Positions 1 through 52,041 of a stretch of 64,000 bases of DNA are shown here, piece after piece (the first letter of the stretch is position 1; every line of letters begins with the position of its first letter). The stretch comes from Bifidobacterium pseudocatenulatum DSM 20438 = JCM 1200 = LMG 10505 (GTDB taxonomy: Bacteria; Actinomycetota; Actinomycetes; Actinomycetales; Bifidobacteriaceae). The notes below the pieces were generated by a model, which saw only the letters and a program-made list of their open reading frames with translations, made no database searches and was not told the origin of the DNA. The position numbers were made by a program, and so were the translations under genes. The stretch is from assembly GCF_001025215.1 (NCBI RefSeq), contig NZ_AP012330.1, forward strand, positions 2,232,001 to 2,296,000, given 5' to 3'.

Positions 1-1036
1 GGAGCTTATCCCCCGCCGACTCACTGCCGGAATACACATCCACGGTATTCGGAGTTTGGCTGCTATTGGTACCCGACACGGGCCCGCAAGCATCCAGTAG
101 CTCTACCCCCGCGATGCAATCAACCGACGCTGCACCTAAATGCATTTCGGAGAGAACCAGCTATCACGGAATTTGATTGGCCTTTCACCCCTAGCCCCAG
201 GTCATCCCCCCGGTTTTCAACCCAGGTGGGTTCGGTCCTCCACGCGGTCTTACCCGCGCTTCAACCTGCCCAGGGCTAGATCATCCCGCTTCGGGTCCAG
301 GGCGCGCGACTCAAAACGCCTTTTGAGACTCGCCTTCGCTACGGCTCCCCCACCACGGGTTAGCCTCGCCACGCACCACTGACTCGCAGACTCATTTTTC
401 GATAGGCACGCCGTCACCCCACAAGGAGGCTCCGACGGATTGTAGGCGCACGGTTTCAGGAACTCTTTCACTCCCCTCCCGGGGTGCTTTTCACCTTTCC
501 CTCACGGTACTGGTACGCTATCGGTCAGACAGGTATGCTTAGACTTACCCCACGGTCGGGGCCGATTCACACGGGATTCCACGAGGCCCGCGCTACTTGG
601 GACACATGATCGGAAGACGGCAAGCTTCCAGGTACGGGGCTGGCACCCTCTGCGGCCAGGCCTTCAAGCCTGTTCCCCTGGCAAGCCGTTTTATGACTCC
701 CGCCCGGTCCGTCGGAACCGGGACACACGCTCCCGCAACACCACGAACGCAACCCCCGACGGGTATCACGCGCCCATGGTTTGGTCTGATCCGCTTTCGC
801 TCGCCACTACTCACGGAGTATCCCTTCCTGCAGGTACTGAGATGTTTCACTTCCCTGCGTACCCCCGGAACAACAAGGTTCCGTGCCGGCCCATGACGGC
901 CGGCGGGTTGCCCCATTCGGAAATCCTCGGATCGAAGCCATGTTGGAGGCTCCCCGAGGCTTATCGCATCCTCAAACGTCCTTCATCGGTACTGTCTGCC
1001 AAGGCATCCACCATACGCCCTTCAGGGCGGCACACG
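1..1036 (-). rRNA. rrl: 23S rRNA, partial (5' portion)
   Basis: The complement reads into the 23S 5' end (the conserved GGTGGATGCC lies at 1003-1012 on the complement). The rest of the gene lies left of the window. The 5' end near 1033-1036 is estimated from the terminal stem: GTGTGCCGC here pairs with GCGGCACAC at the 3' end of the complete copies. It is transcribed leftwards after the 16S gene at 1486-3015. Confidence 0.93.
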
Positions 1037-1485
1037 CCCCGAAAAAACCCAATGATAGCTTCAAACGCCAGACGACAAATCATCACACTGTAAAAAATGA
1101 TCACAAAACGATCGATCTCGAAACCAGACTCCAAAAAAGAAGCCTGGCGAAATCGCGATAAAGCAAACGATGACATCACATCATCGCATTGCTCGCGTCC
1201 ACTATCCAGTTCTCAAACCACCACGCGCCCCGACCGGACCCGACCCGCGGCCCGCAAGGCCGACGGCGTCCCACCAGGGGCATCCGGAAAACCGCACGCA
1301 CCCAAAACGGATGCGGGTGGCGGTCCGGGAACCCAAAAGCATATCCGCACCACTCCCCGCCGGCCCCAAGGACCCGCGAAGCCAACGATCTCTTCCACAC
1401 CAGCACGCCCACACGAACCCGGGAACCATCCCCGGCGCATGGGCCACACGACGGACGCCAGACCGGCGTCCTGAAAAACTCCGTA
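1037..1485 (-). other. 16S-23S internal transcribed spacer, no tRNA
   Basis: About 450 bp between 16S and 23S. I find no tRNA cloverleaf, in line with the tRNA-less spacers known in bifidobacteria. It carries a TTTGAGAACT element (complement, around 1210-1220) that also occurs in the 16S leader, probably part of the antitermination/processing signals. Identical spacers lie at 25425-25873 and 49813-50261. Confidence 0.8.
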
Positions 1486-3015
1486 GAAAGGAGGTGATCC
1501 AGCCGCACCTTCCGGTACGGCTACCTTGTTACGACTTAGTCCCAATCACGAGTCTCACCTTAGACGGCTCCATCCACAAAGGGTTAGGCCACCGGCTTCG
1601 GGTGCTACCCACTTTCATGACTTGACGGGCGGTGTGTACAAGGCCCGGGAACGCATTCACCGCGGCGTTGCTGATCCGCGATTACTAGCGACTCCGCCTT
1701 CATGGAGTCGGGTTGCAGACTCCAATCCGAACTGAGACCGGTTTTCAGGGATCCGCTCCACGTCGCCGTGTCGCATCCCGTTGTACCGGCCATTGTAGCA
1801 TGCGTGAAGCCCTGGACGTAAGGGGCATGATGATCTGACGTCATCCCCACCTTCCTCCGAGTTGACCCCGGCGGTCCCCCGTGAGTTCCCACCATGACGT
1901 GCTGGCAACACAGGGCGAGGGTTGCGCTCGTTGCGGGACTTAACCCAACATCTCACGACACGAGCTGACGACGACCATGCACCACCTGTGAACCCGCCCC
2001 GAAGGGAGGCCATATCTCTACGGCTGTCGGGAACATGTCAAGCCCAGGTAAGGTTCTTCGCGTTGCATCGAATTAATCCGCATGCTCCGCCGCTTGTGCG
2101 GGCCCCCGTCAATTTCTTTGAGTTTTAGCCTTGCGGCCGTACTCCCCAGGCGGGATGCTTAACGCGTTAGCTCCGACACGGAACCCGTGGAACGGGCCCC
2201 ACATCCAGCATCCACCGTTTACGGCGTGGACTACCAGGGTATCTAATCCTGTTCGCTCCCCACGCTTTCGCTCCTCAGCGTCAGTAACGGCCCAGAGACC
2301 TGCCTTCGCCATTGGTGTTCTTCCCGATATCTACACATTCCACCGTTACACCGGGAATTCCAGTCTCCCCTACCGCACTCCAGCCCGCCCGTACCCGGCG
2401 CAGATCCACCGTTAAGCGATGGACTTTCACACCGGACGCGACGAACCGCCTACGAGCCCTTTACGCCCAATAATTCCGGATAACGCTTGCACCCTACGTA
2501 TTACCGCGGCTGCTGGCACGTAGTTAGCCGGTGCTTATTCGAAAGGTACACTCACCCGAAGGCTTGCTCCCGATCAAAAGCGGTTTACAACCCGAAGGCC
2601 GTCATCCCGCACGCGGCGTCGCTGCATCAGGCTTGCGCCCATTGTGCAATATTCCCCACTGCTGCCTCCCGTAGGAGTCTGGGCCGTATCTCAGTCCCAA
2701 TGTGGCCGGTCGCCCTCTCAGGCCGGCTACCCGTCGTAGGCTCGGTGGGCCGTTACCCCGCCGACTACCTGATAGGACGCGACCCCATCCCATACCGATG
2801 AAATCTTTCCCGACACCCCATGCGAGGAGTCGGAGCATCCGGCATTACCACCCGTTTCCAGGAGCTATTCCGGTGTATGGGGCAGGTCGGTCACGCATTA
2901 CTCACCCGTTCGCCACTCTCACCACCAAGCAAAGCCTGATGGATCCCGTTCGACTTGCATGTGTTAAGCACGCCGCCAGCGTTCATCCTGAGCCAGAATC
3001 GAACCCTCCACAAAA
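1486..3015 (-). rRNA. rrs: 16S ribosomal RNA
   Basis: The complement starts with the conserved GGTTCGATTCTGGCTCAG region near 2985-3005 and ends with GGATCACCTCCTTTC at 1487-1501, so the anti-Shine-Dalgarno is intact. The 515F/806R and 1492R signature regions are visible in between. Length is about 1,530 nt, normal for a bifidobacterial 16S. Ends are estimated to within a few bases. Confidence 0.97.
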
Positions 3016-49700: not shown

Positions 49701-49812
49701 CCTCGGATCGAAGCCATGTTGGAGGCTCCCCGAGGCTTATCGCATCCTCAAACGTCCTTCATCGGTACTGTCTGCCAAGGCATCCACCATACGCCCTTCA
49801 GGGCGGCACACG
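46730..49812 (-). rRNA. rrl: 23S ribosomal RNA, third operon
   Basis: Complete ~3,080-nt gene matching 22342-25424 in all stretches compared. Confidence 0.96.
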
Positions 49813-52041
49813 CCCCGAAAAAACCCAATGATAGCTTCAAACGCCAGACGACAAATCATCACACTGTAAAAAATGATCACAAAACGATCGATCTCGAAAC
49901 CAGACTCCAAAAAAGAAGCCTGGCGAAATCGCGATAAAGCAAACGATGACATCACATCATCGCATTGCTCGCGTCCACTATCCAGTTCTCAAACCACCAC
50001 GCGCCCCGACCGGACCCGACCCGCGGCCCGCAAGGCCGACGGCGTCCCACCAGGGGCATCCGGAAAACCGCACGCACCCAAAACGGATGCGGGTGGCGGT
50101 CCGGGAACCCAAAAGCATATCCGCACCACTCCCCGCCGGCCCCAAGGACCCGCGAAGCCAACGATCTCTTCCACACCAGCACGCCCACACGAACCCGGGA
50201 ACCATCCCCGGCGCATGGGCCACACGACGGACGCCAGACCGGCGTCCTGAAAAACTCCGTAGAAAGGAGGTGATCCAGCCGCACCTTCCGGTACGGCTAC
50301 CTTGTTACGACTTAGTCCCAATCACGAGTCTCACCTTAGACGGCTCCATCCACAAAGGGTTAGGCCACCGGCTTCGGGTGCTACCCACTTTCATGACTTG
50401 ACGGGCGGTGTGTACAAGGCCCGGGAACGCATTCACCGCGGCGTTGCTGATCCGCGATTACTAGCGACTCCGCCTTCATGGAGTCGGGTTGCAGACTCCA
50501 ATCCGAACTGAGACCGGTTTTCAGGGATCCGCTCCACGTCGCCGTGTCGCATCCCGTTGTACCGGCCATTGTAGCATGCGTGAAGCCCTGGACGTAAGGG
50601 GCATGATGATCTGACGTCATCCCCACCTTCCTCCGAGTTGACCCCGGCGGTCCCCCGTGAGTTCCCACCATGACGTGCTGGCAACACAGGGCGAGGGTTG
50701 CGCTCGTTGCGGGACTTAACCCAACATCTCACGACACGAGCTGACGACGACCATGCACCACCTGTGAACCCGCCCCGAAGGGAGGCCATATCTCTACGGC
50801 TGTCGGGAACATGTCAAGCCCAGGTAAGGTTCTTCGCGTTGCATCGAATTAATCCGCATGCTCCGCCGCTTGTGCGGGCCCCCGTCAATTTCTTTGAGTT
50901 TTAGCCTTGCGGCCGTACTCCCCAGGCGGGATGCTTAACGCGTTAGCTCCGACACGGAACCCGTGGAACGGGCCCCACATCCAGCATCCACCGTTTACGG
51001 CGTGGACTACCAGGGTATCTAATCCTGTTCGCTCCCCACGCTTTCGCTCCTCAGCGTCAGTAACGGCCCAGAGACCTGCCTTCGCCATTGGTGTTCTTCC
51101 CGATATCTACACATTCCACCGTTACACCGGGAATTCCAGTCTCCCCTACCGCACTCCAGCCCGCCCGTACCCGGCGCAGATCCACCGTTAAGCGATGGAC
51201 TTTCACACCGGACGCGACGAACCGCCTACGAGCCCTTTACGCCCAATAATTCCGGATAACGCTTGCACCCTACGTATTACCGCGGCTGCTGGCACGTAGT
51301 TAGCCGGTGCTTATTCGAAAGGTACACTCACCCGAAGGCTTGCTCCCGATCAAAAGCGGTTTACAACCCGAAGGCCGTCATCCCGCACGCGGCGTCGCTG
51401 CATCAGGCTTGCGCCCATTGTGCAATATTCCCCACTGCTGCCTCCCGTAGGAGTCTGGGCCGTATCTCAGTCCCAATGTGGCCGGTCGCCCTCTCAGGCC
51501 GGCTACCCGTCGTAGGCTCGGTGGGCCGTTACCCCGCCGACTACCTGATAGGACGCGACCCCATCCCATACCGATGAAATCTTTCCCGACACCCCATGCG
51601 AGGAGTCGGAGCATCCGGCATTACCACCCGTTTCCAGGAGCTATTCCGGTGTATGGGGCAGGTCGGTCACGCATTACTCACCCGTTCGCCACTCTCACCA
51701 CCAAGCAAAGCCTGATGGATCCCGTTCGACTTGCATGTGTTAAGCACGCCGCCAGCGTTCATCCTGAGCCAGAATCGAACCCTCCACAAAAAAACTTTGC
51801 AGAAAGCCAACATGTGACTCTCAAAAACAAGAAAATTGACGATCGCCTTATAAGGAAAGGCGCATCGCACGAAAACCTCACCGTCCTTCAAGGCCTCCCG
51901 GCCACTCGCGAACGAGCGGACGATGAACTGGCAATCATTGACTATAAAGAAGTAGTACAAATACGCTCTTGAGTTCTCAAACCACCACCGCTCACCCGCC
52001 TCGAGGCACCCCAGCCGGGGAACCACTCGCCGAGCGGCAGC
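48777..52041. repeat. Partial third repeat copy (rRNA only)
   Basis: Identity with the units continues through the rest of 23S, the spacer, 16S and the leader, with one base change at 52014 (G here, A at 3238 and 27626). It stops at 52042, just at the proximal rrn promoter. Beyond this point the sequence is single-copy. This marks the right end of the tandem array and the original right-hand rrn operon. Confidence 0.93.
50262..51791 (-). rRNA. rrs: 16S ribosomal RNA, third operon
   Basis: Complete ~1,530-nt gene matching the other two copies. Its own leader and promoter differ from those of the units beyond 52042. Confidence 0.97.

What the first reader, a model, noticed from the sequence alone, without database searches (positions are those of the whole stretch)
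1..52041. Perfect 24.4-kb tandem duplication bounded by rRNA operons
The sequence repeats head to tail with an exact period of 24,388 bp for more than two units, without any difference I could find in the protein-coding part. The junctions lie inside direct rRNA operons, so unequal rrn recombination is the natural mechanism; this is established for large duplications in enteric bacteria but is rarely preserved in finished genomes. It may be a selected amplification, still variable in copy number. The window starts inside 23S, so the array could be longer.
Basis: partly seen in the sequence, partly recalled or inferred. Interest (0 to 1): 0.85.

Follow-up and report, generated by a model that had tools for sequence, protein, structure and literature searches.

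The report
Relocated, doubled gene block between rRNA operons
In this gut bacterium's finished genome a block of sugar-use and housekeeping genes seems to have jumped, through the ribosomal RNA genes, from its usual place to another nearby and been doubled; a short fusion scar supports a real rearrangement, but long reads must still confirm the new position and the doubling.

Summary
The repeat is in the assembly and exact: genome 2229617-2259625 recurs at 2254005-2284013 (30,009 bp, no mismatch), period 24,388 bp. It ends 2.4 kb left of the window: two units, three rrn operons, no more. The genome's length matches Bifidobacterium pseudocatenulatum JCM 1200T.

In relatives U lies between blocks A and B; here A and B meet across one rrn, and two U copies lie between B and R: A-B-U-U-R instead of A-U-B-R. 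Each U ends in a fusion outside rRNA: 207 bp past dcd it joins, through 5 bp of microhomology, a 390-bp copy of A's right edge. This is the joint of a tandem duplication or circle formed beside A. Likely rrn recombination then carried the unit into the next rrn and doubled it.

Close precedents exist in Salmonella, including one strain with a moved and doubled region. The fusion lies outside rRNA, but the move and the second copy rest on rrn-spanning joins of the assembly; misassembly is the main rival.

The parts
1..3014 (-). rrnA, left rrn of the array (23S from window 1, 16S 1487-3014; its 5S and the start of the exact repeat lie outside the window, repeat start at genome 2229617). Left neighbour is block B's right edge (AhpC gene), called L.
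   Evidence: Rfam; left end of repeat; AhpC Pfam
3015..21613 (.). Unit copy 1, non-rRNA part (U): esterase/hydrolase 3499-4572 (-), Sir2 4708-5463 (+), threonine ammonia-lyase 5710-6975 (-), GH13 alpha-glucosidase-like 7191-9011 (-), sugar ABC permeases 9413-10297 and 10336-11289 (-), solute-binding protein 11286-12578 (-), ROK regulator 12777-13988 (+), GH36 alpha-galactosidase 14078-16510 (-), Na+/H+ antiporter 16547-19252 (+), dCTP deaminase dcd 20826-21407 (+)
   Evidence: Pfam and NCBIfam
21614..21618 (.). Fusion point in copy 1: U sequence, 207 bp past the dcd stop, joined to the copy of A's right edge through 5 bp shared by both parents (TTGTG)
21614..22003 (.). A': 390-bp copy of the right edge of block A (genome 2154792 onward); 388 of 390 bases identical to it, with one 53-bp deletion and 2 changed bases at the deletion
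22010..27402 (-). rrnB, middle rrn (5S 22010-22127, 23S 22341-25422, 16S 25875-27402); identical to rrnA and rrnC over 5,621 bp
27403..46001 (.). Unit copy 2, non-rRNA part, identical to copy 1 at +24,388
46002..46391 (.). Fusion point and A' in copy 2
   Evidence: period
46398..51790 (-). rrnC, right rrn of the array (5S 46398-46515, 23S 46729-49810, 16S 50263-51790)
52013..52013 (.). Last base of the exact repeat, 223 bp upstream of the 16S of rrnC
52014..64000 (.). Right flank R (GH3 glycosidase 52465-55359 (-), protein kinase 55791-57824, thioredoxin-like 58006-58995, tRNA-Thr 59149-59223, G5-domain protein 59499-60989, rRNA adenine dimethylase 61063-61992, GHMP kinase 61989-62897)

Best explanation
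Three rrn-bounded blocks lie near the origin: A, U and B, followed by R. The likely ancestor was A-rrn-U-rrn-B-rrn-R. (1) Shown by sequence: a fusion arose in which the end of U (207 bp past dcd) joins, via 5 bp of microhomology, DNA that normally lies just left of the rrn preceding U. That is the head-to-tail joint of a tandem duplication or circle of [A'-rrn-U]. (2) Inferred: this unit, as an excised circle or through a larger rrn duplication followed by deletions, recombined by rrn homology into the rrn between B and R, regenerating an rrn on each side. (3) Seen in the assembly, mechanism inferred: the old U is gone, leaving A-rrn-B, as rrn x rrn deletion would. (4) Inferred: unequal rrn exchange (or insertion of a dimer) made two exact copies very recently. 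The pair should be unstable and collapse or expand by rrn recombination. A benefit from extra dosage of the alpha-galactoside uptake and hydrolysis genes or the antiporter is possible but untested.
For: Exact two-unit repeat. Block orders in assemblies: G019 and G041 = A-U-B-R, G020 = U-B-A-R, G000 = A-B-U-U-R. U's end (dcd) and B's start lie within 3 kb of each other with no 16S between in 11 of 23 genomes compared, and are separated by one rrn in 3 of 23; in the other 9 of 23 B's start gave no match or was not near dcd (cut-off 1e-60). L matches G019, G020 and G041 to within 3, 3 and 14 bases of the repeat's start and R matches G019, G020 and G041 from base 1 or 2, though R's first 213 bases are a leader-like stretch that also hits another operon's leader in G020; so the insertion is inside that rrn. 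A-rrn-B: both edges match the outer edges of the two rrn that flank U in G019 and G041. Fusion dcd|A' with TTGTG shared; A' carries its own 53-bp deletion and 2 changes, in both copies. rrnA, rrnB and rrnC are identical over 5,621 bp while rrnX, rrnY and rrnZ differ. 16S count 6 here, 5 in G019, G020, G041 and G001, 1-4 in the other 19 of the 23 (G038 is a draft). In the same species PacBio genomes have 5 or 6 operons among strains at least 99.88% alike.
Against: No reads were available. Two copies with zero differences could be one copy entered twice. The fusion by itself does not show the move: a unit ending in dcd|A' could still lie between A and B, so the move rests on three joins that cross rrn operons (A-rrn-B, L-rrn-U, U-rrn-R). 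The assembly is presumed to be Sanger/454; its own paper was not seen. G020, from the same first and last authors and also with an odd block order, was Sanger+454 with 2-kb and 10-kb libraries. The 1.46-kb flank that precedes the U/B rrn in G019 and G020 is missing here, but it is also missing in G041, where U is in place, so its absence says little. rrnX shares a 23S-end allele with rrnZ, while rrnB and rrnC, whose flank A' comes from rrnX's flank, carry the other allele; the model needs a conversion or further crossover to explain that. No second strain of the species could be examined.
Confidence: 0.62

Rival explanations
1. Assembly artefact of the doubling only: U was really moved into the B/R rrn as a single copy (A-B-U-R, five operons), and finishing entered the 24.4-kb unit twice.
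For: Copies have 0 differences; strains C1, C62 and C95 have five operons, JCLA3 lists 16 rRNA genes, which fits five operons plus one 5S; repeated fragments between rrn operons were treated as possible misassembly in a survey of complete genomes.
Against: Assemblers collapse repeats more readily than they double them (general knowledge); two PacBio genomes of the species also have six operons; rrn operons in this assembly are not one pasted consensus, since rrnX, rrnY and rrnZ differ from rrnA-C; 10-kb clones, used for the sister genome, can span a 5.6-kb operon.
Confidence: 0.18
2. Assembly artefact of the order: the unit with its dcd|A' fusion really lies between A and B, once or twice, and the joins across rrn operons were scrambled.
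For: B. longum NCC2705 was first published misassembled at three rRNA operons; G020, Sanger/454, and this genome, presumed so, give the two unusual orders while the PacBio genome PV20-2 gives A-U-B-R. The fusion does not exclude this.
Against: It needs three wrong joins (A-rrn-B, L-rrn-U, U-rrn-R), each of which a 10-kb clone could have tested. The fusion shows that the region was truly rearranged, in non-repeated DNA with private changes.
Confidence: 0.12
3. Simple unequal crossing-over between two rrn operons that already flanked U at its present site, with the move an older, separate event.
For: Explains the exact doubling on its own; classical in enterics (references seen).
Against: Does not explain the dcd|A' fusion or the missing U at the old site; A' is still 388/390 identical to its source, so the fusion is itself recent.
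Confidence: 0.04

Closest known systems
rrn-bounded region translocations in host-adapted Salmonella (PMC2957434), in particular Pullorum TYT3345, arrangement 17354462
   Same: Blocks between rrn operons change order, mostly within one replichore; one strain has Region 4 in two neighbouring copies in a changed order.
   Different: Determined there by PCR; no sequence-level fusion outside rRNA in the passages read. Different phylum.
rrn-mediated tandem duplications (Anderson and Roth 1981; Hill 1977; seen only as cited references)
   Same: Direct rrn operons at both ends of the unit and between copies.
   Different: Here the unit is away from its conserved site and holds a microhomology joint.
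SNAP model of gene-order change by duplication and loss (PMC7055797)
   Same: Duplication followed by loss of the original copy gives a new gene order; the authors suggest searching for intermediates.
   Different: No selection is shown here, and a circle route is equally open.
Short-junction tandem duplications (recalled, enteric genetics)
   Same: 5-bp microhomology at the head-to-tail joint.
   Different: The joint appears to have been carried to another rrn afterwards.
socru genome-structure typing around rRNA operons (PMC7478630)
   Same: Describes order changes and excision/translocation between direct rrn repeats.
   Different: Treats repeated fragments as possible misassembly; the word Bifidobacterium does not occur in its main text.

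Membership tests
rrn-bounded tandem duplication | Two or more identical copies head to tail | tested here: met
   0 mismatches over the 30,009-bp repeat; in the assembly only
rrn-bounded tandem duplication | Direct rrn operon at each end and between copies | tested here: met
   rrnA, rrnB, rrnC all on the - strand
rrn-bounded tandem duplication | Single-copy arrangement at the same site in relatives | tested here: not met
   G019 and G041 have U between A and B and nothing in the B/R rrn; G020 has U left of B; so it is not a simple in-place case
rrn-mediated block translocation | Conserved block found between different rrn operons than in relatives, orientation kept | tested here: met
   in the assembly only
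rrn-mediated block translocation | Old site closed by one rrn | tested here: met
   A-rrnX-B, both edges match relatives; in the assembly only
rrn-mediated block translocation | Order confirmed in DNA by PCR or long reads | not testable with these tools
   No reads held
Short-junction duplication | Novel head-to-tail joint at a few shared bases outside long repeats | tested here: met
   TTGTG at window 21614 and 46002
SNAP intermediate | Duplicate kept by selection for dosage | not tested
   No fitness data
Assembly artefact | Single-copy read depth or no spanning reads | not testable with these tools
   No reads held

The most novel reading that the evidence does not exclude
The origin-near rrn operons of the B. 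catenulatum/pseudocatenulatum group act as a recombination array in which whole gene blocks are cut out and re-inserted into other rrn operons, giving different block orders even between strains of one subspecies; this genome is caught mid-process, with the microhomology joint of the founding duplication still readable and the moved block still doubled. It would be a sequence-level intermediate of gene-order change by duplication and loss.
Probability: 0.45. Interest if true: 0.65.

Novelty: new member of a known kind. Interest (0 to 1): 0.5.

Why it matters
Gene order may change by duplication followed by loss, but intermediates are rare; the SNAP authors (2020) wrote that there was no direct empirical evidence and suggested searching for intermediate steps. 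This genome offers a candidate with a readable, recent joint, a closed old site and the moved block still doubled. It also warns that copy numbers of genes and of 16S in the type-strain genome of a common gut species may be strain- or culture-specific.

Tried and rejected
A longer array beyond the window: rejected, two copies only. One pasted consensus rrn throughout: rejected, rrnX, rrnY and rrnZ differ from rrnA-C. A' as an old, diverged copy: the first BLAST figure of 89.6% was an effect of one 53-bp gap; apart from 2 bases the copy is identical. Absence of the relatives' U/B flank as proof that old U was deleted: dropped, because G041 lacks that flank too. A mobile element driving the move: no integrase or transposase family among the 16 ORFs of the unit scanned with Pfam (10 of them also with NCBIfam); the other ORFs of the unit were not scanned. 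Crossover mapping inside rRNA: inconclusive, because rrnA, rrnB and rrnC are identical. Independent evidence on copy number in print: none seen in the listings (16 of 16 papers listed; 6 of 6; 15 of 43; 12 of 456; 12 of 156; 8 of 8) beyond the operon or rRNA counts in PMC5312088 and PMC9695335. Step counting: from A-U-B to A-B-U-U takes 2 steps if excise-and-reinsert is allowed and 4 with duplications and deletions only; this does not model the microhomology joint. On re-checking I lowered the main confidence from 0.68 to 0.62 and the novel reading from 0.50 to 0.45, because the fusion does not by itself prove the move and the flank argument fell.
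Full report
WHAT WAS GIVEN. A reader reported a perfect 24,388-bp tandem duplication bounded by rRNA operons at window 1-52041 and proposed unequal rrn recombination, possibly a selected amplification, possibly longer than the window.

WHERE IT IS. The window is bases 2232001-2296000 of a single-contig genome of 2,313,752 bp. PMC5312088 (passages and section 10 read) lists exactly this length for Bifidobacterium pseudocatenulatum JCM 1200T and names AP012330.1 among the genomes used. The identification rests on that length match. 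dnaA starts at base 1, so the region is close to the likely origin; all six 16S genes are on the - strand between 1.71 and 2.28 Mb, which by inference means transcription away from the origin.

THE REPEAT. Every base from window 1 to 27,625 equals the base 24,388 further on. With flanking sequence fetched, identity runs from genome 2229617 to 2259625 against 2254005 to 2284013: 30,009 bp, no mismatch. The layout is L-rrnA-U-rrnB-U-rrnC-R. A search of the own genome with the 18.9-kb non-rRNA part finds two full copies and no third. The array therefore does not continue to the left.

CONTENTS OF THE UNIT. By Pfam and NCBIfam: an esterase-like hydrolase, a Sir2 protein, threonine ammonia-lyase, a GH13 alpha-glucosidase-like enzyme, a sugar ABC importer (two permeases and a binding protein), a ROK regulator, a GH36 alpha-galactosidase, a Na+/H+ antiporter and dCTP deaminase. 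The middle of this set looks like an alpha-galactoside (raffinose-type) utilisation cluster; that substrate is inference from the enzyme families.

THE UNIT IS OUT OF PLACE. dcd is present in 112 of 112 genomes searched in the genus, this one included; only this genome has two full-length near-identical copies (G045 has a second copy only 59% alike; G085's match is split in two). Many of the 112 are drafts in which an exact duplication could be collapsed, so the count matters mainly for complete genomes. I compared 23 genomes, 22 of the 23 single-contig relatives (G085 was left out) plus the draft G038, for 16S, threonine ammonia-lyase, the whole unit, block B's left part and R. In 11 of 23 (G001, G007, G011, G015, G028, G031, G038, G042, G044, G074, G104) the start of block B, a P-type cation ATPase gene, lies within 3 kb of dcd with no 16S between. 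In 3 of 23 (G019, G020, G041) one rrn lies between. In the remaining 9 of 23 (G006, G082-G084, G086-G090) B's start had no match at the cut-off used or was not near dcd. Mapping of edges gives the order A-rrn-U-rrn-B-rrn-R in G019 and G041, U-rrn-B-rrn-A-rrn-R in G020, and A-rrn-B-rrn-U-rrn-U-rrn-R here. In G001, and by match positions in G028, A is followed by an rrn, then U and B joined. So U between A and B is the conserved state, and this assembly lacks U there and holds it, twice, in the rrn that in G019 and G041 has B (its AhpC end, L) on one side and R on the other. L matches G019, G020 and G041 to within 3, 3 and 14 bases of the repeat's start. R matches from its first or second base, although its first 213 bases are leader-like and 75-82% alike; the unique part of R begins about 350 bases in.

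G020 is B. catenulatum subsp. kashiwanohense JCM 15439, AP012327, and G041 has the length of strain PV20-2, published as B. kashiwanohense. Block order thus differs between two strains of one subspecies, if both assemblies are right. G019 is B. catenulatum by recalled length.

THE FUSION OUTSIDE rRNA. After dcd, this genome follows G019 and G020 for about 210 bp (89-95% alike) and then switches to a copy of A's right edge, which leads into the 5S gene. The switch is at window 21614 and 46002, 207 bp past the dcd stop. The five bases TTGTG are shared by the two parent sequences there. The copied piece, A', is 390 bp; 258 bases from the joint and 130 bases up to the 5S are identical to A's own edge at genome 2154792, with a 53-bp deletion and 2 changed bases between. 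The corresponding edges in G019, G020 and G041 are about 86-94% alike to A or A', depending on the part. So the fusion is recent, within this lineage. Because A' normally lies just left of the rrn that precedes U, a U-to-A' joint is the head-to-tail joint of a tandem duplication or circle of [A'-rrn-U]. It does not depend on assembling rRNA, and its private changes make a cloning chimera unlikely. It does not by itself show where U now lies: a unit ending in dcd|A' could in principle still sit between A and B. In G038, where U and B are joined, the sequence after dcd is different, so the U seen here derives from the form with an rrn between U and B. The 1.46-kb stretch before that rrn in G019 and G020 (99% alike) is missing here apart from weaker matches of up to 269 bp elsewhere, but G041 lacks it too, so this is not evidence for deletion of an old U.

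rRNA OPERONS. rrnA, rrnB and rrnC are identical over 5,621 bp; rrnX (between A and B), rrnY and rrnZ differ from them in the 23S-5S region, the spacer or the leader. So finishing did not paste one consensus everywhere. One result does not fit simply: rrnB and rrnC carry A' next to their 5S, but not the 23S-end allele of rrnX, which shares that allele with rrnZ. A later conversion or crossover between the 5S and the 23S end must be assumed.

HOW IT LIKELY AROSE. From A-U-B, the shortest route to A-B-U-U is two steps if a block can be excised and re-inserted, and four with tandem duplications and deletions only; neither count includes the microhomology event. I favour: microhomology duplication beside A; transfer of the rrn-U-A' unit into the B/R rrn by rrn homology; loss of the old U by rrn recombination; a last, very recent doubling. 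The route (circle or duplication-deletion) is not resolved. Selection for dosage is possible but untested.

ARE THE MOVE AND THE DOUBLING REAL? For: assemblers rarely invent exact extra copies (general knowledge); operons are resolved individually; PacBio genomes of the species have five (C1, C62, C95) or six (C15, C55) operons although these five strains are at least 99.88% alike, so operon number changes quickly in this species. Which block is doubled in C15 and C55 is unknown to me, and the same paper reports high synteny with JCM 1200 with some differences, without naming this one in the section read. Against: no reads; B. longum NCC2705 was first misassembled at three rRNA operons (PMC1285363, abstract and passages); the rrn-typing paper treated repeated fragments as possible misassemblies and judged 88 of 1,295 ESKAPE genomes invalid (PMC7478630, passages); a putative rRNA tandem duplication in Streptococcus iniae QMA0248 was poorly supported by reads and not seen by PCR (PMC9176272, passages). 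JCM 15439 was sequenced by Sanger and 454 with 2-kb and 10-kb libraries (PMC4400426, whole text); PV20-2 by PacBio (PMC4319591, whole text). The JCM 1200 paper (Morita 2015) was seen only as a reference.

WHAT IS KNOWN. In host-adapted Salmonella, blocks between rrn operons move, mostly within a replichore, and Pullorum TYT3345 has arrangement 17354462, with Region 4 doubled (PMC2957434, passages). This is the closest match. The SNAP paper (PMC7055797, passages) proposes that gene order changes by duplication and loss, says direct empirical evidence is lacking and suggests searching for intermediates. I saw no description of this relocation or duplication in Bifidobacterium in the listings, which cover openly licensed papers only and were in part capped.

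VERDICT. Observation confirmed. Interpretation partly supported: rrn recombination yes, simple in-place duplication no. It is a new member of a known kind, in a different phylum from the best-known cases, with an unusually informative joint.

Noticed in passing
G020 (L020-L024), rrn operons at 2102674, 2131524, 2202710, 2304953: Block order U-B-A-R, differing from the PV20-2-length genome of the same subspecies (A-U-B-R): a second rrn-bounded block move, or an assembly error in a Sanger/454 genome.
   Followed up: partly
G019 1990600-1992060 and G000 2160700-2161870: The rrn between U and B in the catenulatum group looks like a late insertion with mixed flanks: part of its left flank in G019 resembles (91%) that of the G001 rrn near 1909954, part of its right flank (75%) that of the G001 rrn near 1553646.
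   Followed up: partly
genome 2222331-2223892 (L007), outside the window: Inverted paralogue, 92% identical, of the unit's GH13 alpha-glucosidase-like gene, about 5.7 kb left of the array.
   Followed up: no
window 3100-3365 and genome 2042060-2042325: The upstream region of the array's rrn operons on the U side is 100% identical to that of rrnY for 266 bp, suggesting recent exchange between rrn leaders.
   Followed up: no
genome rrnX (about 2155.2-2160.6 kb) and rrnZ (about 1703-1708.4 kb): Both share a 23S 3'-end and 23S-5S spacer allele that differs from rrnA, rrnB, rrnC and rrnY.
   Followed up: no
G041 2251522-2265192 (L026, L027): About 13.7 kb of extra DNA between dcd and the next rrn in the PV20-2-length genome, including a stretch 73% alike to the unit's left-end sequence.
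   Followed up: no
G085:C1:125692-126275: The dcd match is split into two neighbouring pieces in one single-contig genome, possibly a frameshift or sequencing error.
   Followed up: no
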